Part shown: piece by piece, positions 506 to 63,255 of the stretch | Layout of the letters: every line of letters begins with the position of its first letter | Position numbering within the stretch: the stretch's first letter is position 1 | From: Halichondria panicea | Taxonomy: Eukaryota > Porifera > Demospongiae > Suberitida > Halichondriidae | Reading direction: 5' to 3' | NCBI RefSeq assembly: GCF_963675165.1 | Contig: NC_087386.1 | Span: 3,164,169 to 3,228,168 of the forward strand | Length of the DNA stretch: 64,000 nucleotides | Translations under genes and position numbers: made by a program | The notes under the pieces: generated by a model | What the model saw: the letters and a program-made list of their open reading frames with translations, nothing else | Told to the model about the DNA's origin: nothing | The model's database searches: none

Positions 506-10923
<10,418 letters not shown>

Positions 10924-16393: not shown

Positions 16394-17798
16394 ATCGATT
16401 CACCTCGTACTAGACTATCATCTCACAAACCACTGTCTGTATAAATATTATTGTATATACATTAAGCGAGCCTTGTTATTAATTTACTTGAAGTTTATAT
16501 AGCACTGTACGTAGAGGTTGGTAGATTATGCGCTAGCATAATTTTAAGGTACATTTTTTTGGTGAGAATTAAGCTGGCATAATAGGCACATTTATAACAA
16601 TTATGAGAATAATAGGCAGGTTTAACAGAAATACAGGTCAGTACGAGTCATAGTAGCAGCAGTAGCACTGGTAGCACTGGTAGCAGCAGCACTGGTAGCA
16701 CTAGAGTAAAGTATACCAGTCGGACACCGATATCTTCAAAACTACAAAAGATACAGATACGAGTCAAAGACCATTTTAAAGCTAATTTCCTATTCTCCTG
16801 TAGCTATACTGCGCTAATATTAGCGTTTATAGCTAAAATATTGCTGACTAAGCACTTTACAACCCTCACAAAGAAACAAGTGTAGCTCCGCTTTGCAGGG
16901 TCGCCTGATTCTGGGAATTGCGCCACTCTGTACTGCACTCTATCTAGATTGTACTCAGCTTGTGTCAGTTAGCTCTAGCTGTGTAGTTTGGCAAAAACGG
17001 GGATCGGTACGTTCTGACGAAAATCGAAAAATTCGGTATTTTTTTCAAGTTATCACTGCTTGAACTGGAAGCGACTTGGCCTATCCAAGTTTTCGCTGGA
17101 TAATAGGCCCATGGCCATCTGTTTAATAGTGTGTGTAATTAGTTTGAATCAGTCTTGTTTTATTTATGCGTTACACGCCCTTTTACCTGATGCACTTTGA
17201 TGTCTGACGGAATTCGGCGACTTACTGCAACAATCGTCGGACAAAAACAAGGTAAGCTTAAGTTCGGACAGTGCTGATTATTATTCTTAACTAGCTAGCT
17301 GCAGACAGCTCAAACTCCTATCTAGCCTCGAGACCAGGCCGATTAAAATACGTATTTTAATCGGCCTGGATTCGAGGCTAACTCCTATCAGGCTCTGCAC
17401 TAGTCTCGCGAGCAGACGTGGGAGGGAGCGACACTAGCTCTGCCTACTACATGTAGTATTTTTCAACTTCGTTCTATTAAAAAAAAATCGGCCTGGGACC
17501 GTACGGTACCTACTAGATCTATGTAGCCTCAATTCCAGGCCGCTCTTCAGGCTAGTGAAGGATGCTAACTTCTATGCTGCTATTATACCTCTGCTATTAT
17601 ACACCCAGCTACTATGACATCATTAAGAAGGTATGTATATTACTATATAGATGACGTACAATGTACATGGAGAAACAACCAATCAGTCGCCCTCAGTCCC
17701 CTTCCTGATCCTCGCGCACTTGCATATGCGGAGGAATTTGACTTCTAATAATAATAATAACTAGATATTAAACTCTAGGTGTAGTGTGTGTACTTGTT
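16394..17798. other. Intergenic repeats between the receptor-like gene and the Delta-like gene
   Basis: No gene seen. Holds a dispersed repeat at 16514-16660 that also occurs at 40960-41230 (shared blocks gttggtagattatg and caggtcagtacgagt), an (AGCAGCACTGGT)-type low-complexity run at 16655-16705, and a near-perfect palindrome at 17325-17386. At 17500-17545 are further pieces of the 'cctcga..ccaggccg' family. Confidence 0.6.
17325..17386. mobile_element. Minimal palindromic element 'agcctcgagaccaggccgat'
   Basis: Two arms of about 28 bp meet at aaaatacgtatttt and form a nearly perfect hairpin. The arm begins agcctcgagaccaggccgat. It is related to the ends of TE1 (21899-23470), to the palindrome at 39938-39989 and to the fragment at 63207-63255. 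It looks like a transposon collapsed to its inverted termini. Confidence 0.7.
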
Positions 17799-20029: not shown

Positions 20030-20950
20030 CTAAAATGTAGTGTCGTTGACAAAGTTGTACGATGACGGGTAGTTTTGTGGTGGTGGGTCTCGCTGCTGCA
20101 TGACTAATTGCATCATTCTGTATTCATGCTCCTGGTCTGCCTTCCTTCGTTTTTCATCCAATTCCATTTCTTTCGTCCACCTTTCTTCTTCTCTTTTATC
20201 ATTCTTCTCTTCTGAGTCCTTATGATATTTAAGAAATAAACTCACTGTTTTTTCCATCATCTTCTCCGACTTGCTTTCTTTTTTTGCCCTTTTTTTTGGT
20301 GGCTCAGCTGCTTAATGAATGTGTGCATGTGTGTTAAATAATAACCAAAAACAATAGTTTGTTTATTTAATGTGACGATTATTAACGTTATACTTGTTTC
20401 ATTCTCAGGAGTTTTTTGGCCGGAGTGCCCTGGCCCTGGTGAATCTGACTTCCATCTGCACAAAATGATTGTAGGGTAAGGTACGTATACAATTTTTTTC
20501 AAACAATGAAATTTACCGTTTGCTTCTTCAGGGTCAGGGTCGGAGTCAGTGTCTAGGGCGGCTTCAGTGACCAAGTTTCCTGAATCTAAGAGAGTGACGG
20601 GTGTGGAAGCTGGCCTATGCCCAAGAATGCAGTCCAACTCTTTGTAAAATTTGCACTGTTTCCTTCCATTGCCAGTTTTGTTATTGTGATCTTTGACTTC
20701 TTTGTAGCTTGTTTTAAGGTTTTTAACTTTAGAACGGCACTGTTTCCAATTCCTGGTGTGTCCTTGTTTTTGCAATTTTTTTGCAATTTTTTCATACACT
20801 GATTTGTTACGCACAGCACCATCTAGCTCCTCCTGAATCCTGCTGTCACTCCAAATAGCAAGTAGAGCCCTGACTTCAAGGTCACTCAAATTAAAGCACT
20901 GAGCAGACCGACAAGACGTCTTTTTCAGATATGGGAGCAGCTCAGCATGC
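20030..20950 (-). CDS. Myb/SANT-like trihelix DNA-binding protein, possibly Harbinger-transposon related
   Basis: Three exons are modelled on the minus strand: about 20950-20517, 20444-20394 and 20307-20030. The first carries a trihelix domain: DLEVRALLAIWSDSRIQEEL, KSVYEKIAKKLQKQGHTRNW, KQCRSKVKNLKTSYKEVKD. An acidic stretch (DTDSDPDPEE) follows, then a short Pro/Gly linker, a basic PPKKRAKKESKSEK segment and a charged C-terminal helix (MMEKTVSLFLKYHKDSEEK...). This layout recurs in Myb-like proteins encoded beside PIF/Harbinger transposases and in their domesticated relatives. No transposase was found here. The N-terminal start is unresolved: a stop lies just upstream and no in-frame ATG precedes the domain, so an upstream exon is likely. 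The acceptor of exon 2 was chosen because only that site (after gtcag) keeps frame with exon 3. Confidence 0.7.
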
Positions 20951-21185
20951 AAAATGGTCAACTATATCGACAGTCCATGTAGCCATTATAATTCAACAGG
21001 AAATTGTTATTTGGTGGTTTTATCTGCTTCCTTCAAAGCGGTTTGAGCGTTTACACACGTCTCTTATTTCTCAATCGTCTTGGAAACCGGCTTCAAACCA
21101 CATCAGCGCAAGCGATTTGCAAGTCGATCTAGCGCGTTTGACAGGAAGCGCTTTCAAAGCGAAGCTAAGTGTAAACGGGGCTCTA

Positions 21186-21488
21186 TACAGTAGAACCTCG
21201 ATTATCCGGCCCTCGATTATCCGGAACCTCGATTATCCGGCTTGGCAGTTTTCTTGTTATCAGATCAGAAAATGGGCGTGTCCCTCAAACGCGCATGCGC
21301 GTTGCAGCTGTTACCATGGAGACATGCCTGCTTATCTTCTGCGCATGCGCAGACAACCATGTGGCACTGCTGTTTATCAATAAAGTGGGTGGATCAAGGC
21401 GTGGTTTATCTATTCGATTATCCGGCATATTCACTTATCCAGCCTGCTTCTGGAACCAAGGTGTCCGGATAATCGAGGTTCTACTGTA
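21186..21488. mobile_element. MITE with 'TACAGTAGAACCTCGATTAT' inverted termini
   Basis: Begins TACAGTAGAACCTCGATTAT and ends ATAATCGAGGTTCTACTGTA, an exact inverted match over the first 20 bases. The left end carries two further 'ctcgattatccgg' units in tandem. The total length is about 300 bp with no ORF of note. A degenerate relative lies at 5472-5731. Confidence 0.85.
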
Positions 21489-22029
21489 CCCCTTTCCTTA
21501 CCATTCGTGAAAGTCTGGAACAGGAGCGTCTTTAGGTCGATCAATTAGTGTGGATCCGGCCTCACCACGCCTCCATGTCATTCTATTAGTCTAGATCCGG
21601 CTAGCAATTCTAGCTGGGACTCCCAGTTCTAGCTCCTTTTGTTTAGCGTGTCAGAGACTGGGAGAAGATGATTGTCACTCCCTGGCTCCTTTGGATGTAC
21701 AGCTGTCCAGATCCCTAGAACATACCCTCCATTCTGACGAGTTATCAGTGCATAGGGTGCTTACTAGATTCTTGCCAGCCAGTACAGTTCAAGCTACACA
21801 CAGCACCGCTCAACTATTCTCTACCCCATTATCTAGCTAAATCTGGTCCAACTAGACAGCAGACACAGCTAGTTAATTCAGTAAAGCCAGGGGTAGCTTA
21901 GCCTCGATCCCAGGCCGATCCGTCTCTAATTGAACGCTAGGTCGCCTCCTCGGCCTGGTATTGATTGTATCTGGGCGTGACTTCGTTATTATTATTAAGT
22001 CCATGTGAAATGAAAATTGAATAAAATTA

Positions 22030-22569
22030 ATGATGGCTTCTAAGTTTGTTCTTTGTAGGTTATGTTGCAGCACTGGTGCCATACAAAACAGAAGATATAA
22101 ACATTTGTTCAGCAGTAAGGCTCTCAAAGAAGATATTCCAGGGAGGCTCAGTCTTGCATTGGATCTGCCTGTTAGTGATTCAGATGGCCTGTCAAAGATT
22201 GTCTGTCTTTCTTGTATCAAGAAGATAGAGTCCATAGAGGTGTTCAGGCTCCTGGCCAGACGTAGCTACCAGAAACAAGTGTCCAAAGAGCAGCTCCCTA
22301 GTAGTCCAGTAAGATCAGCCCCTAAGAAAAGGACTAAGGACACGAGTGGTTCCGACGCATCTCCTTTTACTGTGAGCTCGCGTCCATCAGCAAAGAGGAG
22401 TACCATCGGGGTTCGAGGAAAAAGGCTTGCTTTTACTCCTGCACAAAGTAGGAAATTTTTAATGTGATAGTGTTGTAAATAAAATTATTTTTTTAGCTCA
22501 CATTGATGGTCCACATAATGCCAGTGCCTCGACATCATCTGCAATCGCTGTGGAGCTAGAGGGTAGGTC
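22030..22569 (+). CDS. ZAD-like C4 zinc-finger protein fragment encoded inside TE1
   Basis: Exon 22030-22448 begins MMASKFVLCRLCCSTGAIQN and carries two Cys pairs (CRLC near residue 10, CLSC near 62), followed by a helix and a basic Ser/Thr/Lys-rich tail. This spacing resembles the zinc-finger-associated (ZAD) domain, a protein-interaction module. A likely second exon 22496-22566 (after tttttag; phase agrees) adds an Ala/Ser-rich stretch before another GT. No C2H2 fingers follow, so the protein is incomplete or the 3' part has been lost where the opposite-strand helicase relic begins. Role in the transposon is unknown; DNA or protein binding is inferred. Confidence 0.6.
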
Positions 22570-22584
22570 AGAAACTATCCAGTT

Positions 22585-23230
22585 TGCAGCCAACATTGGA
22601 GCACCAGGAGGGGCAAATGCTCTAAGCTCACCTAGGTGTGCATAGGCAGGACGAAAGTCAGAGCTCCTACAGAACATACATAATAATCACAACGGGAGTT
22701 ATTAATAACTTACCACTTGTAAACACAGTGTGCTTCGTCCACAGCTATTGCCACTAAAGAGGAATTGAGTGGAGGCTCTAGTAATAGCATCCTCCAACGA
22801 TAGTCTTCAACAACAGCCTCTGGGGCAGTGAACAGCAGACGGTACTTTCCATCCGACACATCTTTGTTAGTGGCAACAAGACTTCTGTCGATTCCCTTAT
22901 TACTACTGAGGATGGGAAACACCTCTAGTGTTCAGACTCCTGACCTGGTCAATCATGAGAGACACAAGGGGAGAGATGACAAGACTACACTTCTGGCGAC
23001 AAGAGGACCCTTAGTCCTACCAAGCTTGTAGTCCATCAAGAAGGGTAGCAATTGATAGCACAGAGACTTGCCATACCCAGTTGGGAACCACACAAAAACG
23101 TCCCTTCCTTCTGACAGGAGCTTGAGAGCACGGACCTGCTGTTCCTTGAGGATCAGTCCTTCTTGCTTCACACAAGACAGTACATATGCTAATGCTTCTT
23201 GGATATCAAAGACGTTGAAATTGCCATAGT
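22585..23230 (-). pseudogene. RecQ-like DNA helicase relic inside TE1
   Basis: Minus-strand reading frames show helicase motifs in order: LKEQQVRALKLLSEGRDVFV (motif 0), then FPTGYGKSLCYQLLP (Walker A), VISPLVSLMIDQVRSL (Ia, in another frame), RLLFTAPEAVVEDYRWRMLL, VDEAHCVYKW (DEAH) and, after a probable intron, SDFRPAYAHLGELRAFAPPG. At least two frame changes (near 23000 and 22925) break the reading. Everything beyond the first RecA domain is absent. RecQ-like genes of this type recur as multicopy mobile-element passengers in some invertebrate genomes; that point is from memory. Confidence 0.85.
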
Positions 23231-23473
23231 AGTATAGCTAGCTAGCTTTACGGAGCTATTCATGAGATTACAATTACTTTTACGGAGTAGGTGCTCATAC
23301 ATACACCATTAGTGTTAAGTCGCTCAGGAATTCGCTCTTTTTTAGCGAATACCTGAGCGAGGTGGAGCCAATAAGAGCACGCCCAGATACACGCCCAGAT
23401 ACAATCAATACCAGGCCAAGGAGGCGACCTAGCGTTCAATTAGAGACGGATCGGCCTGGGATCGAGGCTAGGG

Positions 23474-24238
23474 GTTAGACTCGCAAGCCACTCCCTTTTC
23501 TCTGATTGGACGGGGGCGGGAGAAAAGGGACTGGTGACTCTGGGACACATTTTGTGTCTCTACCAGAATTTGGGTAGAGATTATTCATTGATTTTTCCAC
23601 GTGATCCAAAAATTGCGTGAGGTTAAGTAGAATTGCGTAGCCTGCAAAAGTGATCGCGGGCTTCTTAGCAACAGTTTAAGAATGGATGCTAGTGCTAGAA
23701 AAGAGAAGATGATGGAGTAATAACATCATCAGGCATTCAGCTAGGATATAGTCATCTAAGACACCAGCAGAGATTAGCTTGTTTTAGTTTTACGTGATGA
23801 GAACTGGCAGCCGAAAGTCATTGGTTGCCTAAAGCTTTTAATAACCTGTACAATACAAGACAGATAATGGCAGACGGCAGCAGTTGAATTGAGAGTAGTC
23901 AGACTTGTACAAGCTGTCTTAAATCCCTGCCACTCCTCGGTTCAAAGGACTGCCAAGATTTCTACGTTCATCAGCTGTTCCATGCTAATCCACAAGTTGT
24001 GGCACAACAGACACTGGTACAAGGATCTATAAAATCAAAAGGCTGGCTAGATAGATCTGTATACTTGTCTTCTGTGTGTCTTTAGCTTTTGACGCATCAG
24101 AATAAATTGGATAATCTGCACGTGACATTAATATTTAATAGCATTCCTGATTTACACAAGCTGTAGCCCACAGTCACCAGTCCCTTTTCTCCCGCCCCCG
24201 TCCAATCAGAGAAAAGGGAGTGGCTTGCGAGTCTAGCT
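23474..24238. mobile_element. TE2: inverted-repeat element beside TE1
   Basis: The left end TAGACTCGCAAGCCACTCCC continues for about 60 bp (to 23540, ...gggactggtgactc) and is reverse-complemented at 24173-24236. The interior of about 640 bp is AT-rich and has no ORF with recognisable motifs. A shorter relative with similar termini lies at 39891-40190. TE2 abuts TE1, and the two together interrupt R1 copy A. Confidence 0.8.
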
Positions 24239-24774
24239 AGGGGTAGCTGTACTTCTACGGTTGTTCAGTACCCACGGTAACAATTCATCTGGGCTGGGCT
24301 AACTAGTTGAGCCACGCCTCCCAATTCTCAAGGCTAGGTACATGTCTCTGTCTAGCTGCTTCTTCAGCTTCTTGCTCAGTTTTGTGGCTTAGAGAAAGGC
24401 CAGCTACTCAGGGGGAAGAGTCGAGATGAAAGTCTGGCAGCCAGGTGACGTCCAAACGGTCAGTTATTCTTTCCACCAACTTTTTAATCTAGTCTAGTCC
24501 TGCTTGCACTGCTACTACTACTGCTACTCTTCCTACTACTACTGCTGCTACTCTTCCTAGCTAGTCAAAGGTTTCTTTTTTTTTTTTATAATTACATATG
24601 CACAAAGAGACATCAAAGCTTACATCAAAGGACACAGATTTTTAGCCTACTTGACTGATAAGGCCGTTACCTAGACTACAGTTTGTTTGTCAGGGAGGAG
24701 CTCACATACAACTTCATCTAATTCATCATAACGATTCGTTACCGTTGTTGTAATTTCTACAACAGATTGCCAAG

Positions 24775-25433
24775 GATCAGCTGTACGCGCCTCCTCGGGG
24801 TTAGGCTTGCCATAAGCTCGCCTTGCTACCGGGGTAGCTAAATTGAACTGTAAGGTAAGCACGCCGATTTTTTTTTAGAACAAAGTTTGTGGCCTAAAGT
24901 TATTTTAGATACAACTCGGCTGGGAACAAGGCTCCTGATTGCTTGCTATTGAACTGATCAGAGCTAGAGAGGCGCTAGGCTAGTACTATAGTGCAGCTGT
25001 GGGTTGGATCTGGGTCTACTCTCTGTTCAGCTAAAGGTTATCAAACTGAGTTTGCAAATCAACATCTGCTTTATTCTATCTCTGTTTGGAAGTGTATAGA
25101 GGGTGTGTCCATAGGTAGATCTAGTTTAGCTGTGTATGGTTTACCTATATGTACGTATACATTAACGCACATCAATGTCAGGCCCTACCCCCGAGGTACG
25201 GGCAGTATAGGGGCATTAGTAGGGGGTTATAGGACCATTATCGCTCAAATCCCCCAGAGGCTTTTGCATCAATGTTTTGTCATGTCCAAAATCCCTGGTG
25301 TACTCCCACCAATACAAGGGATTGATAGGGGGTTACGCACGAAGAACCCACCCCATTGGGCATACATTAATAATCCCCACTCTGCCTTTATAAATTGTGC
25401 AGAGGTGGGGCTTGACATTGATAGGTGCATAAC
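24775..25433. other. Non-coding stretch after R1 copy A
   Basis: No gene recognised. Open stretches here (for example 24991-25443 plus) have no domain, biased composition or splice context. The minus strand at 24775-24862 extends the R1 coding-like tail upstream (ATPVARRAYGKPNPEEARTA...), but no family is recognised. Confidence 0.4.
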
Positions 25434-39714: not shown

Positions 39715-40694
39715 TAATAATACCCACCAGAAAATTCTACCCGATACTTCAAAAAGGACACTGAATTAGAAGTTACAGAATTAGACCCCCCAAAAAATCA
39801 AAACCATGCACACACAAAAACATACCCTCGAGAAGATCATTGAGATCTATACCTGTGCACAAAATCATACCCTCCAAACGTCACACCCCCCCCTAGTCTT
39901 GCAAGCCACGCCCCTTCACTGAAAGAAGGGTCTGGAGTAGCCTCGAGACCAGGCCGATTAATTTTAATCGGCGTGGTCTCGAGGCTAGGTCTGGAGTTGT
40001 TCCTGTGGAATTTAATTTAGATTAGCTATCAGCATGCCAATATGTGGGTGTGATTGTGTGTGTGGTTTTAAGATATGAGTGGGTGGACAATGACGTTTCA
40101 GAAATCTGCAATCTGATTGGTAGCACCAACACTGGCACAGATAACAACTCCTTCTTTCTGTGAAGGGGCATGGCTTGCAAGACTAGGGGGTAGCAGGGTT
40201 TAATCTAGGGGGGGGGCTGGGGTGAACCTTCCCCCCCAAAATGCTCATCTTCCCCCCAAAATGTTCATATAATAATGACATCATCACATGAGTACTGTCT
40301 ATGATGTGGAATATGTAACTAGATCTACTATGATGCACTAGCATGTAATAGGGGGTGTGGTCAACAAATGTGGGAGTGGCCAAACATTTTGCGGCATGCG
40401 TAAACCTTCCCCCCAAAACTTTTAATCCTAGATGAAACCCTGAGTGGTAAACGTTTTGGAGGTTATGATTTTGGTATTGTTTCTGATATGATTTTCTGGG
40501 GGGTCTGTTTTCGTGTGTGCGCAGGTATGATTTCCTCGAGGGTAATGATTTTTGTGCATGGGTGTATTTTCTCTGTTTAACTTTTGGGTATGATTTTCTG
40601 GAGTATACTTTTGTGGGGGACTGATTCTGCAAATTCAGCAAATTCAGTGTCCTTTTTACAGTGTCAGCATATTTAGGGTAGCATTTTCTGGTGG
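39715..40694. mobile_element. Nested inverted-repeat elements upstream of oxidase copy 1
   Basis: The outer termini are taataatacccaccagaaaa (about 39715) and its inverted match ttttctggtgggtattatt (ending about 40694), with 'aaaaaggacactgaatt' inverted just inside. Within lies a smaller element, 39891-40190, ending in ctagtcttgcaagcc on both sides and related to TE2. Inside that is the hairpin 39938-39989 (gtagcctcgagaccaggccg, reversed). The layers imply at least three successive insertions. Confidence 0.75.
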
Positions 40695-44049: not shown

Positions 44050-45970
44050 AGGACATGTAGACATGTTCTACGAATAAGAAAATCATAATGGACAACCCTT
44101 AGGGGAAGTTAGAGTTCTTCAAAATCGATATTAATTTTGTGTGATTTTAAACTGTGCTCTTGAAACCAGGACAATACATTCAAATTTTGCACATTCTGAG
44201 TACCGTAGTTGATGTAATTACAGCGCCACCATATAAACTTAAGTGTCAACTCAGGCTGAACGCAATTATTCAGGTCTTTAAAAAAGCGCCAACGGATAGC
44301 GCTTATAGCCTCCTTCACAAGGCCTCAGGCCTCTCTTCGAGGAAGAGCGGCCTGGAATCGAGGCTAATAAAAAGGCTGTGATGACTAATTAATAAGGCAG
44401 TCAGCTTTTAGTAATACTGTTGTCCTATAATAATTATTATGCACATGCGTTGCATAATCGTATGTCATGATGCGGTATCAGTGACTGGAGAGTGTACAGT
44501 ATGCTGTTGCTGTATCAAGAGTATTATCTACTCTTGTGTATAATGATCTAATTGTATGATGATCAGTGACTGGAGAGTGTACAATTAATTCGGTATCACA
44601 TCTGGTCCAAGTAATTGCAGCGTGTCGTCATTTACAGAGTGCAATTATTTGTGAGTAATTGCACGTCGTCAATGACAACATGTAGTGTTTTCGAATAACA
44701 GCCGCGGCTGAAAATGTGCAGATAACTTCTTCATAATTATAGGTATTGTTATACTCGTGCAATAAGGGATTAATAGTGTTCAATACATAACAAGCACTGG
44801 TACACTCGGCTACGCCTTGCCGTTGCTCGTGCTATTAATCCTATAAAATTGTTGCATTCTTAGTCTACTAACTGTCTAGATGCAGCTGCATGTAACATAC
44901 AGAGTGTAATCGTATGATTGACTGGAAAGTGTACAGTAATTAATTCCGTATCACATCCGATCCAAGTAATTGCACGTCGTCATTGACAGAGTTTACTTGT
45001 CGATTAATTGCAGGTTGTCATTGACAGACAAAAGTGTAGACAATCAAACTACAGCTAGTTTAGTGTCTCTTAGTATAGCCTTGCCATTGCTTGTTACTCG
45101 TGCCCATTTGTATTTTAACCATAATAAAGTCTAACTGTCTAGATGCAACTGTGAGACCAAAAGTCAAACAGTAGCCACTTGCGTACTATGCTAAGAGATT
45201 GCACTAGACACTAAACTAGCTGTAACCAGAGAGCTATAGCACAGCATACTCGGATATATATATACATGTATAGTTGAGCGTGGCCCGACCTTCTGTTAAA
45301 AAAGGAGGTTGGGGTTCTAAAAATGCGCCACTGCATGCAAAGGGGAATTTTTTTCTGGCTGTAATTCGATTTAATTACATGTACTTAGTCTATTGGATGC
45401 GCATTACTTTACACGTACTCTACGTATTAATGTCATTATTCCCTAAAATTATACAAATTAAAGCGCCAGAAAAATTTCCAGGAACGAGGCTAATGTAGAT
45501 AAAACTGCAACCCATTTTACTCGAGCTTTTGTTCTTTGTCGACAATCGATAAAATACAACACGGTATTAATTGGAAGAAGAAATAGAAGTAAAGTTAATG
45601 TCCATCATTTTCTTATTCTCTGCCTCCCATAATCTCTACATGTAGCTCGATCATTTATATTGAGAGCTAGACAATAATAAGAAAAATATAAGCCTGGGGA
45701 CAAGGCTAACCCTTTACATGTAAAAGTAGCATTATAATTACACAGATATTCATGTACCTGTTTGCAATGGCATAACAACATCAATTATAAATAAAACAGC
45801 ACCGTATACTGTCGGTATTAAATAAAACTCAGTGAAAATCTAGAGTTGCAGCTAGCTAATCATGAGTCTGCACAGTGACACATCTTTATACATGAAAAAT
45901 CATACAATAAATATGTTTAAAAAGCACGCATACACGCACAACACTGTTACGAACTATAAATTGTGTCGTA
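44050..45970. other. Intergenic repeats between the oxidase cluster and the ABC transporter gene
   Basis: No gene recognised. Contains a partial inverted-repeat end at 44203-44290 (taccgtagttgatgtaatta), a fragment ending gcggcctggaatcgaggcta (44348-44367), and dispersed 'gtaattgcacgtcgtcaatg' words between 44580 and 45030 that also occur near 41085. The block gattgcactagacact (45190) recurs at 26487. Confidence 0.5.
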
Positions 45971-60059: not shown

Positions 60060-60745
60060 TCGGATAGAACCTCCGGGCGACAGTTTCTCGAAGGTGGCGG
60101 CGGCTTAACCTCAAATGTGGCGGAGGCTGTTTCCTTCTTCTATCTATGGTGGCGGCTGGTGTTTTTTGGTGGCGGCATGAGAGTGTAGAGCTTTATCTAC
60201 GGTGGCGGCGGCTTAACCTCGAGGTTACGTCGGTGTTTACTTGGTGGAGGCGGCTTAGCCTCGAATATATTAATGTGGATATGTGAATAAGATAATGTTG
60301 GACCACTTGACCTTTAACTAATTAAAGTTATCTTGGCAGACTACTTCTCAAGCTTGTTTTTAGTGTCTGGGAGGGATTGTGGAGTGGTCAAGACCAGTCC
60401 AGACAGTTGCTCTAGCACTGACCTGATATCAGGCTGCTCATGGTCTCGAGGCTAGCTAGCATTTCTCTACCGTATAGCTGGTAATTTTCGTGGGGCAAAA
60501 TATTTGTGGTTGGAGGTCTGACCACGAATATTTTACCCACAAATGAAGCGACCTTGCCTATACCTTTACCTACAATCCAAGCAGCAACCACGAAAATATT
60601 ATCCACAAAATGTCTCAATATTGCTGAACCACGAATATTTTGTCCCCCGAAAATTACCTGCTATACGGTATTAGCTAAGGTCAAGTGGTTCTAACGTCAT
60701 CTATATTCACGGCTGGCCTTTACATTTTCGAGGCTAAGCCGCCGC
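60060..60745. repeat. GGC-rich repeat region flanking a MITE
   Basis: Repeated ggtggcggcggcttaacctc units occupy 60090-60260, and a reversed unit (cgaggctaagccgccgccac) lies at 60731-60755, so the region is bounded by loosely inverted copies. The MITE at 60468-60670 is nested in it. Confidence 0.55.
60468..60670. mobile_element. MITE, 'TACCGTATAGCG' family, full-length, reversed
   Basis: Reverse-complement relative of 6455-6664 over the whole 205 bp, with exact blocks such as caaccacgaaaatattatcc. Termini: taccgtatagctggtaattt and aaattacctgctatacggta. Confidence 0.85.
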
Positions 60746-61905: not shown

Positions 61906-61983
61906 ATAATTATTCCAGTTCCCGTTCTATATAATCATGGCTCTCAAAAAGTCAGAAAAGTGGCTTGGCGTGTTTCAGTATAG

Positions 61984-62901
61984 CCCTTTCCTTGCCATTC
62001 GTGAAATCTGGAACAGGAGCGTCTTTAGGTCGATCAATTAGTGTGGATCCGGCCTCACCACGCCTCCAAGTCATTCTATTAGTCTAGATCCGGCTAGCAA
62101 TTCTAGCTGGGACTCCCAGTTCTAGCTCCTTTTGTTTAGCGTGTCAGAGACTGGGAGAAGATGATTGGCACTCCCTGGCTCCTTTGGATGTACAGCTGTC
62201 CAGATCCCTAGAACATACCCTCCATTCTGACGAGTTATCAGTGCATAGGGTGCTTACTAGATTCTTGCCAGCCAGTACAGTTCAAGCTACACACAGCACC
62301 GCTCAACTATTCTCTACCCCATTATCTAGCTAAATCTGGTCCAACTAGACAGCAGACACAGCTAGTTAATTCAGTAAAGCCAGGGGTAGCCCTACTTCTA
62401 CGGTTGTTCAGTACCCACGGTAACAATTCCTCTGGGCTGGGCTAACTAGTTGAGCCACGCCTCCCAATTCTCAAGGCTAGGTACATGTCTCTGTCTAGCT
62501 GCTTCTTCAGCTTCTTGCTCAGTTTTGTGGCTTAGAGAAAGGCCAGCTACTCAGGGGGAAGAGTCCAGATGAAAGTCTGGCAGCCAGGTGACGTCCAAAC
62601 GGTCAGTTATTCTTTCCACCAACTTTTTAATCTAGTCTAGTCCTGCTTGCACTGCTACTACTGCTGCTGCCTACTGCTGCTACTCTTCCTAGCTAGTCAA
62701 AGGTTTCTTTTTTTTTTTTTACATATGCACAAAGAGACATCAAAGCTTACATCAAAGGACACAGATTTTTAGCCTACTTGACTGATAAGGCGGTTACCTA
62801 GACTACAGTTTGTTTGTCAGGGAGGAGCTCACATACAACTTCATCTAATTCATCATAACGATTCCTTACCCATTGTTGTAATTTCTACAACAGATTGCCA
62901 A
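61984..62901 (+). repeat. Dispersed repeat R1, copy C (full length)
   Basis: Intact copy of about 918 bp starting ccctttccttgccattcgtg and ending caacagattgccaag. It is the reference for the uninterrupted sequence around the TE1/TE2 insertion in copy A (here gccaggggtagccctacttc). Confidence 0.9.
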
Positions 62902-63206
62902 GGAAAGAGATAGAGCCAAATAACCTCTGGACAATAAATTGGGGAGTATAAGTAGGAGTTAGGTGACTGGCTGAATTAAAAATGATAATGTTATAAATTC
63001 ATACTAAATCTAGCTCCGGTGTACAGACATAATTAATTCAGTCATTGTGCATGTAGCTATAGCTAGAGTCTACTGCAGACATGTGCAAGTAGCTAGCTAT
63101 TATATCAAGTCTATACTGCAGACAATGGAGAGTCTACTACTTAAAACTAGGCTGGCTAGCTTTCTACTTATTTAGTAGAGTGATCAGGCAAGAGCATATC
63201 TCATTT

Positions 63207-63255
63207 TAGCCTCGATCCCAGGCCGATCCGTCTCCAATTGAACGCTAGGTCGCCT
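63207..63255. mobile_element. Solo terminus of TE1
   Basis: tagcctcgatcccaggccga followed by tccgtct and an attgaacgctaggtcgcct block matches the first 49 bases of TE1 (21899-21947) with one mismatch, then diverges. No opposite end is present in the window. Confidence 0.8.

What the first reader, a model, noticed from the sequence alone, without database searches (positions are those of the whole stretch)
21889..24248. TIR transposon carrying a ZAD-like zinc finger and a RecQ-like helicase, inserted into another repeat
TE1 has 80-bp inverted ends and brings together a C4 zinc-finger ORF and a RecQ-family helicase relic, in convergent orientation, with no recognised transposase. R1 copies B and C give the empty site, and a 10-base direct repeat (aggggtagct) flanks the whole TE1+TE2 block. 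A helicase as transposon cargo suggests a replicative or repair-coupled transposition mode. This is the best candidate here for an undescribed mobile system, although this copy is decayed.
Basis: partly seen in the sequence, partly recalled or inferred. Interest (0 to 1): 0.75.

Follow-up and report, generated by a model that had tools for sequence, protein, structure and literature searches.

The report
Decayed AcademH-like transposon with RecQ helicase
The finding is a real but broken cut-and-paste jumping gene in an animal-type genome; its helicase, its 9-base footprint and its layout fit an already described group of helicase-carrying transposons (AcademH) better than an unknown mobile system.

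Summary
TE1 (21899-23470) has 81-bp inverted ends with one mismatch. It holds the 5' part of a zf-AD (ZAD) zinc-finger gene and, on the other strand, roughly the N-terminal third of a RecQ helicase gene with a 47-bp intron. TE2 is a separate element nested in TE1's right target-site duplication. The "10-base repeat" resolves into two 9-bp duplications: GGGGTAGCT for TE1, GCTAGGGGT for TE2. Two further elements, 50 and 58 bp long, share TE1's terminal motif and have exact 9-bp duplications.

Best explanation: an internally deleted, non-autonomous copy of a cut-and-paste transposon whose parent carried two convergent genes, ZAD-X (probably the transposase) and RecQ. Helicase plus 9-10-bp duplication is how AcademH is described (passage of PMC10045372), so "undescribed system" and "helicase as cargo" are not supported. 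The transposase is missing, the source genome is not held and the AcademH paper is not held, so membership is likely but unproven; a Mutator-like parent is the main rival. Novelty is low to moderate. The oddest point is the 50-58-bp "ends-only" elements.

The parts
21483..21897 (+). R1 repeat copy A, left part (repeat into which TE1 inserted)
   Evidence: 98.6% identical to 58468-58055 (-) and 98.8% to 61981-62390 (+)
21890..21898 (+). TE1 target-site duplication, left copy (GGGGTAGCT)
   Evidence: matches the right flank at 9 bases after subtracting TE2
21899..23470 (.). TE1, internally deleted TIR transposon, 1572 bp
   Evidence: TIRs and duplication
21899..21979 (+). TE1 left TIR, begins TAGCCTCGATCCCAGGCCGAT
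   Evidence: 80 of 81 complementary to the right TIR
22033..22447 (+). ZAD-like C4 zinc-finger gene, predicted exon 1 (open; a second ATG lies at 22030)
   Evidence: Pfam zf-AD E 5.1e-7; splice sites
22448..22496 (+). predicted intron of the ZAD gene (GT...TTTTTTTAG)
   Evidence: reading stays open across it
22497..22562 (+). ZAD gene, predicted exon 2, ending at a donor-like GTAGGT at 22563
   Evidence: sequence reading; prediction only
22563..22588 (.). junction where the ZAD gene meets the broken-off end of the RecQ gene (inferred internal-deletion breakpoint)
   Evidence: RecQ homology stops at residue 99-100 of the 107-residue spliced piece
22562..22666 (-). RecQ relic, exon with the stretch after motif II (SDFRPAYAHLGELR)
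   Evidence: splicing raises the recQ_fam match from 32.2 to 57.8 bits
22667..22713 (-). predicted 47-bp intron in the RecQ relic (GTAAGT...TGTAG)
22714..22931 (-). RecQ relic, exon with motif II (DEAHC)
   Evidence: recQ_fam profile 92-142 of 470
22956..23237 (-). RecQ relic, N-terminal piece with motif I (FPTGYGKS); the frame changes around motif Ia just downstream
   Evidence: recQ_fam profile 13-51 of 470; Pfam DEAD 6.1e-6; frames
23390..23470 (-). TE1 right TIR
23471..23475 (+). TE1 right target-site duplication, first 5 bases (remainder at 24245-24248)
23467..23475 (+). TE2 target-site duplication, left copy (GCTAGGGGT)
23476..24235 (.). TE2, 760-bp non-autonomous TIR element, 82-bp TIRs (77 of 82), nested in TE1's right duplication
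24236..24244 (+). TE2 target-site duplication, right copy (GCTAGGGGT)
24245..24248 (+). TE1 right target-site duplication, last 4 bases (AGCT)
24236..24776 (+). R1 repeat copy A, right part
   Evidence: 95.0% and 93.5% identical to copies C and B
17323..17380 (.). 58-bp palindromic ends-only element with TE1-like termini, 9-bp duplication ACTCCTATC
39938..39987 (.). 50-bp palindromic ends-only element with TE1-like termini, 9-bp duplication GGTCTGGAG
63207..63255 (+). third TE1-type terminus (49 bp, 98%); the sequence beyond it differs and the other end was not found within the window

Best explanation
TE1 is an internally deleted, non-autonomous copy of a cut-and-paste DNA transposon of the AcademH kind. 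The parent element, inferred, carried two intron-containing genes that start inside the two inverted ends and converge: one with an N-terminal ZAD-type zinc finger (probably the transposase's DNA-binding or dimerisation domain, with its catalytic part in the deleted middle) and one for a RecQ-type helicase. The transposase, supplied in trans, would bind the TAGCCTCG... ends, excise the element and join it to target strands staggered by 9 bases, leaving the 9-bp duplication. The helicase would act as an accessory, opening the ends, unwinding the flanks or clearing the strand-transfer product. Shown here: ends, 9-bp duplications at four elements (TE1, TE2 and the two ends-only elements), the nested order (R1, then TE1, then TE2), the two gene fragments and their truncation at one place. 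Predicted from sequence: the introns. Inferred: the missing transposase, that ZAD is its N-terminus, the helicase's role, and AcademH membership.
For: 9-bp duplication: among 59 terminus pairs (TAGCCTCG with at most one mismatch, TAG fixed, 30-6000 bp apart) 3 have exact 9-bp flanks, 0 at lengths 4-8 and 10-12, 1 at 2 and 3 at 3; 200 random-position trials give a mean of 0.005 pairs (largest 1) at 9 bp with at most one mismatch. TE1 itself fits once TE2 is subtracted. Terminus motif over-represented: 16 matches against 0.21 expected. RecQ: by molecule name 37 of 38 PDB sequences hit by the first piece are RecQ-family (the other is DDX52) and 36 of 36 hit by the spliced piece, three rows in each being titled only 'ATP-dependent DNA helicase' and counted as RecQ from recall; recQ_fam 8.3e-16. 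The ZAD ATG lies 50-53 bp inside the left TIR; on the right the frame opens about 150 bp inside the TIR and RecQ homology starts about 240 bp inside it; both genes stop at one junction. AcademH: helicase with 9-10-bp duplications, AcademX: nuclease with 3-4 bp (passage of PMC10045372); 'RecQ Helicase in Academ' (passage of PMC3627910).
Against: No transposase sequence is present, so the catalytic family is not shown. The AcademH paper itself (Kojima 2020) is not held, so terminal motifs, gene order, presence of ZAD and occurrence in this host could not be compared. Only one element in the window carries ZAD or RecQ. ZAD gives no match to PDB sequences at E up to 1. TIRs of 81-82 bp with a 9-bp duplication would also suit a Mutator-like element.
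Confidence: 0.7

Rival explanations
1. TE1 is a Mutator-like (MULE) non-autonomous element; the RecQ fragment is either an acquired accessory or a captured host fragment (Pack-MULE style).
For: 9-bp duplication and long TIRs fit MuDR (IS256/MuDR: 4-10 bp according to PMC10045372). TE2 has the same duplication length with similar TAG[A/C]CTCG ends and no ZAD/RecQ match.
Against: Captured host fragments would not be expected to place two DNA-processing genes that each start just inside their own TIR and converge on one junction. In the passages read, RecQ helicases are reported for Academ and Kolobok, not MuDR.
Confidence: 0.17
2. TE1 is a KolobokH-type element (RecQ helicase downstream of a Kolobok transposase, or on the complementary strand as in a red-alga Kolobok).
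For: RecQ helicase; complementary-strand arrangement in Kolobok-1_CCri (passage in PMC9587614).
Against: Kolobok makes TTAA duplications and has 5'-RR...YY-3' ends; here the duplications are 9 bp and not TTAA, and the ends are TA...TA.
Confidence: 0.03
3. The element belongs to an undescribed superfamily with its own ZAD-transposase and a RecQ partner.
For: The transposase is unseen; none of the passages read mentions ZAD in a RecQ transposon, and the one paper listed by the ZAD search is on Drosophila germ cells (listing only).
Against: The two testable traits, helicase and 9-bp duplication, are those given for AcademH.
Confidence: 0.08

Closest known systems
AcademH lineage of the Academ superfamily (Kojima 2020, Mob DNA 11:15; paper not held, known here through passages of papers that cite it)
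   Same: Encodes a helicase, makes 9 or 10 bp target-site duplications, found in animals and fungi (passage and cited title in PMC10045372); a RecQ helicase in Academ is also stated in PMC3627910.
   Different: This copy has lost the transposase region and most of the helicase; ZAD N-terminus, the TAGCCTCG termini and the host could not be compared.
KolobokH
   Same: DNA transposon with RecQ helicase.
   Different: TTAA 4-bp duplication and RR/YY termini; found only in fungi according to the passage (plus a rhodophyte Kolobok with RecQ on the other strand).
Mutator-like elements (MuDR/MULE)
   Same: Duplication length in range, long TIRs; two convergent genes in maize MuDR (recalled).
   Different: RecQ not reported for MuDR in the passages read; no MULE transposase match seen.

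Membership tests
AcademH | 9-10-bp target-site duplication | tested here: met
   9 bp at TE1, TE2, 17323-17380 and 39938-39987
AcademH | encodes a helicase | tested here: met
   N-terminal part of a RecQ helicase, recQ_fam 8.3e-16 on the spliced piece; truncated and frame-broken
AcademH | Academ-type transposase | not testable with these tools
   region absent from TE1; source genome not held
AcademH | terminal sequence and gene order of described AcademH families | not testable with these tools
   paper not held
KolobokH | TTAA target-site duplication | tested here: not met
   9-bp duplications that are not TTAA
KolobokH | RecQ helicase | tested here: met
Mutator-like (MULE) | duplication of about 9 bp | tested here: met
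Mutator-like (MULE) | MULE transposase | tested here: inconclusive
   no such hit among the 4 translated pieces of TE1, but the middle is missing
Helitron | no TIR, no target-site duplication (recalled definition) | tested here: not met
   81-bp TIRs and 9-bp duplication

The most novel reading that the evidence does not exclude
The parent is an unrecognised lineage in which a ZAD-type zinc finger serves as the DNA-binding/dimerisation head of the transposase and a RecQ helicase works as its partner. This machinery can mobilise minimal palindromes of 50-58 bp consisting of two ends back to back, a size at which ordinary looping of double-stranded DNA to pair the ends would be very costly, so the helicase may act on hairpin or extruded substrates.
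Probability: 0.1. Interest if true: 0.6.

Novelty: new member of a known kind. Interest (0 to 1): 0.32.

Why it matters
It indicates that the helicase is most likely a standing gene of a described transposon lineage and not chance cargo. It resolves a nested insertion into two clean 9-bp events, and it gives defined termini (TAGCCTCGANNCCAGGCCGAT) with which the autonomous element and its transposase can be pulled from the source genome. If ZAD proves to be the N-terminus of an Academ-type transposase, that would add a transposon source for ZAD-type zinc fingers in animals. The 50-58-bp ends-only elements would make a good test of the minimal substrate of such a transposase.

Tried and rejected
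Own-genome search: no genome held. ZAD protein against viral contigs: 5 pattern matches, none confirmed. Termini in viral contigs: 0 hits for each of three patterns. Degenerate 21-base terminus in genome contigs: 3 hits, all records titled as bacterial. Of these L002 has 27 bp identical to 17354-17380, but it lies at the end of a Bacteroidetes contig inside an open frame, and no second end of the element was found on that contig: chimera or chance, not used. Single-sequence structure prediction of an 89-residue ZAD piece failed (mean pLDDT 39.6) and was not taken further. ZAD against PDB sequences: no match at E up to 1. ZAD and the unspliced RecQ pieces against NCBIfam: ZAD 0 families, the third RecQ piece 0 families; 2 of 4 pieces had no Pfam hit.

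A general scan of 117 inverted 12-mer seeds 150-8000 bp apart for exact 7-11-bp flanking repeats returned only TE2; it could not see TE1 (split repeat) or elements under 150 bp. A looser partner search from 26 termini found partners for 6 of them (both ends of TE2, 17323-17380 and 39938-39987) and one weak partner (45492/41289, 7 of 12, one mismatch in the repeat) that I dropped as chance; the other 19, TE1's two ends and the 63207 end among them, had none within 6 kb (TE1's because TE2 splits the repeat).

Considered and rejected: KolobokH (wrong duplication), Helitron (has TIRs and a duplication), chance inverted repeat (81 bp, 99%). Statements about what is in print rest on the ten searches. 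Most papers were seen as listings only (one search listed 25 of 49); passages were read in PMC9587614, PMC3627910, PMC12730594, PMC10045372, PMC10799480, PMC10294476, PMC12210899 and PMC8290104. The tRNA scan (none) and tandem repeats added nothing.

Full report
Observation. The window looks eukaryotic: intron-bearing frames, an animal haem peroxidase (Pfam E 3.4e-171) and a flavin amine oxidase (2.3e-21). No genome is held for it. The inverted ends of TE1 are 21899-21979 and 23390-23470, 80 of 81 complementary; those of TE2 are 23476-23557 and 24154-24235, 77 of 82. TE1 and TE2 sit in copy A of a repeat (R1) that has two unoccupied copies in the window: B at 58468-57553 (minus) and C at 61981-62904; the three are 95.4-98.6% identical pairwise.

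Target sites. It is better read as two nested 9-base duplications. TE2 is flanked by GCTAGGGGT on both sides. This target consists of the last four bases of TE1 and the first five bases of TE1's right flank. Subtracting TE2 and one copy of its duplication restores TE1's right flank as GGGGTAGCT, identical to its left flank; of lengths 5-12 only 9 matches. Since TE1 ends in A and A also precedes the left copy, a 10-bp duplication with ends one base unequal is also possible. Order of events: R1 copy, then TE1, then TE2. The unoccupied sites in B and C read GGGGTAGCC followed by C, where copy A has GGGGTAGCT followed by G.

A family of ends. I scanned for TAGCCTCG with at most one mismatch outside TAG: 26 left-type and 28 right-type sites, 59 pairs 30-6000 bp apart. 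Exact flank repeats by length: 9 bp in 3 pairs, 0 at 4-8 and 10-12, 1 at 2 and 3 at 3. In 200 trials with random positions the mean was 0.005 pairs (largest 1) at 9 bp with at most one mismatch. The three pairs are TE2 and two palindromes of 58 bp (17323-17380) and 50 bp (39938-39987), which fold on themselves almost completely. With TE1, four elements show a 9-bp duplication. The longer motif TAGCCTCGANNCCAGGCC occurs 16 times with up to 3 mismatches against 0.21 expected in shuffles. A third TE1-type end lies at 63207-63255 (49 bp, 98%); its partner was not found in the window. TE2's ends (TAGACTCGCAAG) share only the outermost bases with TE1's, so TE2 is a related or merely similar family. 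Most single termini in the window have no detectable partner (19 of 26 tried, TE1's own two included).

Genes in TE1. Left: an open frame from ATG 22030/22033 with Pfam zf-AD at 30.3 bits (cut-off 28, E 5.1e-7), a likely intron 22448-22496, and a second exon to a donor-like site at 22563. Right, minus strand: pieces matching recQ_fam at profile positions 13-51 and 92-142 of 470; a third piece alone matches nothing. A predicted 47-bp GTAAGT...TAG intron (22713-22667) joins DEAHC to SDFRPAYAHLGELR; with it removed, the match rises from 32.2 to 57.8 bits, profile 92-167, E 8.3e-16. These are fragment scores, far below the model's full-length cut-off of 219.8. Solved-structure matches are RecQ-family by name in 37 of 38 cases for the first piece (the other is DDX52) and 36 of 36 for the spliced piece; three rows in each list are titled only 'ATP-dependent DNA helicase' and are counted as RecQ from recall. 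The frame changes around motif Ia, so this helicase copy is broken. RecQ homology stops at about 22588, some 25 bp from the end of ZAD exon 2: both genes are cut at one place. This is the signature of an internal deletion of a larger two-gene element. The ZAD ATG lies 50-53 bp inside the left TIR; the RecQ frame opens about 150 bp, and its homology starts about 240 bp, inside the right TIR. ZAD and RecQ peptides find nothing else in the window (best E 0.3).

What it is. Passages read: PMC10045372 says that AcademH generates 9 or 10 bp and AcademX 3 or 4 bp duplications, and links this to the helicase and nuclease they encode. PMC3627910 mentions RecQ helicase in Academ. PMC9587614 describes KolobokH with RecQ, and Kolobok's TTAA duplications and RR...YY ends. 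TE1 has RecQ and 9 bp: AcademH fits, KolobokH does not. The AcademH paper is not held, so its termini, its gene order and whether its transposase has a ZAD head were not compared. A MULE parent remains possible because MuDR duplications cover this size.

How it works (inferred beyond the ends and duplications). A transposase made by an intact relative binds the ends, excises the element and inserts it at 9-bp staggered cuts; gap repair gives the duplication. The helicase probably helps to open or clear DNA at the ends. Nothing here calls for replicative transposition, though nothing here excludes it.

Verdict. Real, decayed and mostly explained: a non-autonomous AcademH-like element. Confidence 0.7. 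Novelty: new member of a known kind. The leftover oddity is the pair of ends-only elements of 50 and 58 bp with perfect duplications; whether they inserted at that size or shrank afterwards cannot be told from one copy each.

Noticed in passing
window 17323-17380 and 39938-39987: Ends-only palindromic elements of 58 and 50 bp with TE1-like termini and exact 9-bp duplications; unusually small for a cut-and-paste element.
   Followed up: partly
window 21186-21488: 303-bp element with 24-bp perfect inverted ends (TACAGTAGAACCTCGATTATCCGG), like a pogo/Tigger MITE (name recalled), abutting R1 copy A; a 71%-identical stretch lies at 5547-5728.
   Followed up: no
window 20260-20961 (-): 234-aa frame with a Myb/SANT-like DNA-binding domain, Pfam 5.5e-19, possibly from a Harbinger-type element (recalled association).
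   Followed up: no
window 44349-44366 (-) and 17524-17541 (+): Single termini of what looks like a second sub-family (TAGCCTC[G/A]ATTCCAGGCCGCTCTTC) without a paired end within 6 kb.
   Followed up: partly
L002 4567-4593: A Bacteroidetes MAG contig end carries 27 bp identical to the window's 17354-17380; assembly chimera or chance.
   Followed up: partly
window 60256-60736: 481-bp stretch with inverted TAGCCTCGAA ends whose flanks are themselves inverted (GTGGAGGCGGCT/AGCCGCCGCCAC), so its true ends lie further out.
   Followed up: no
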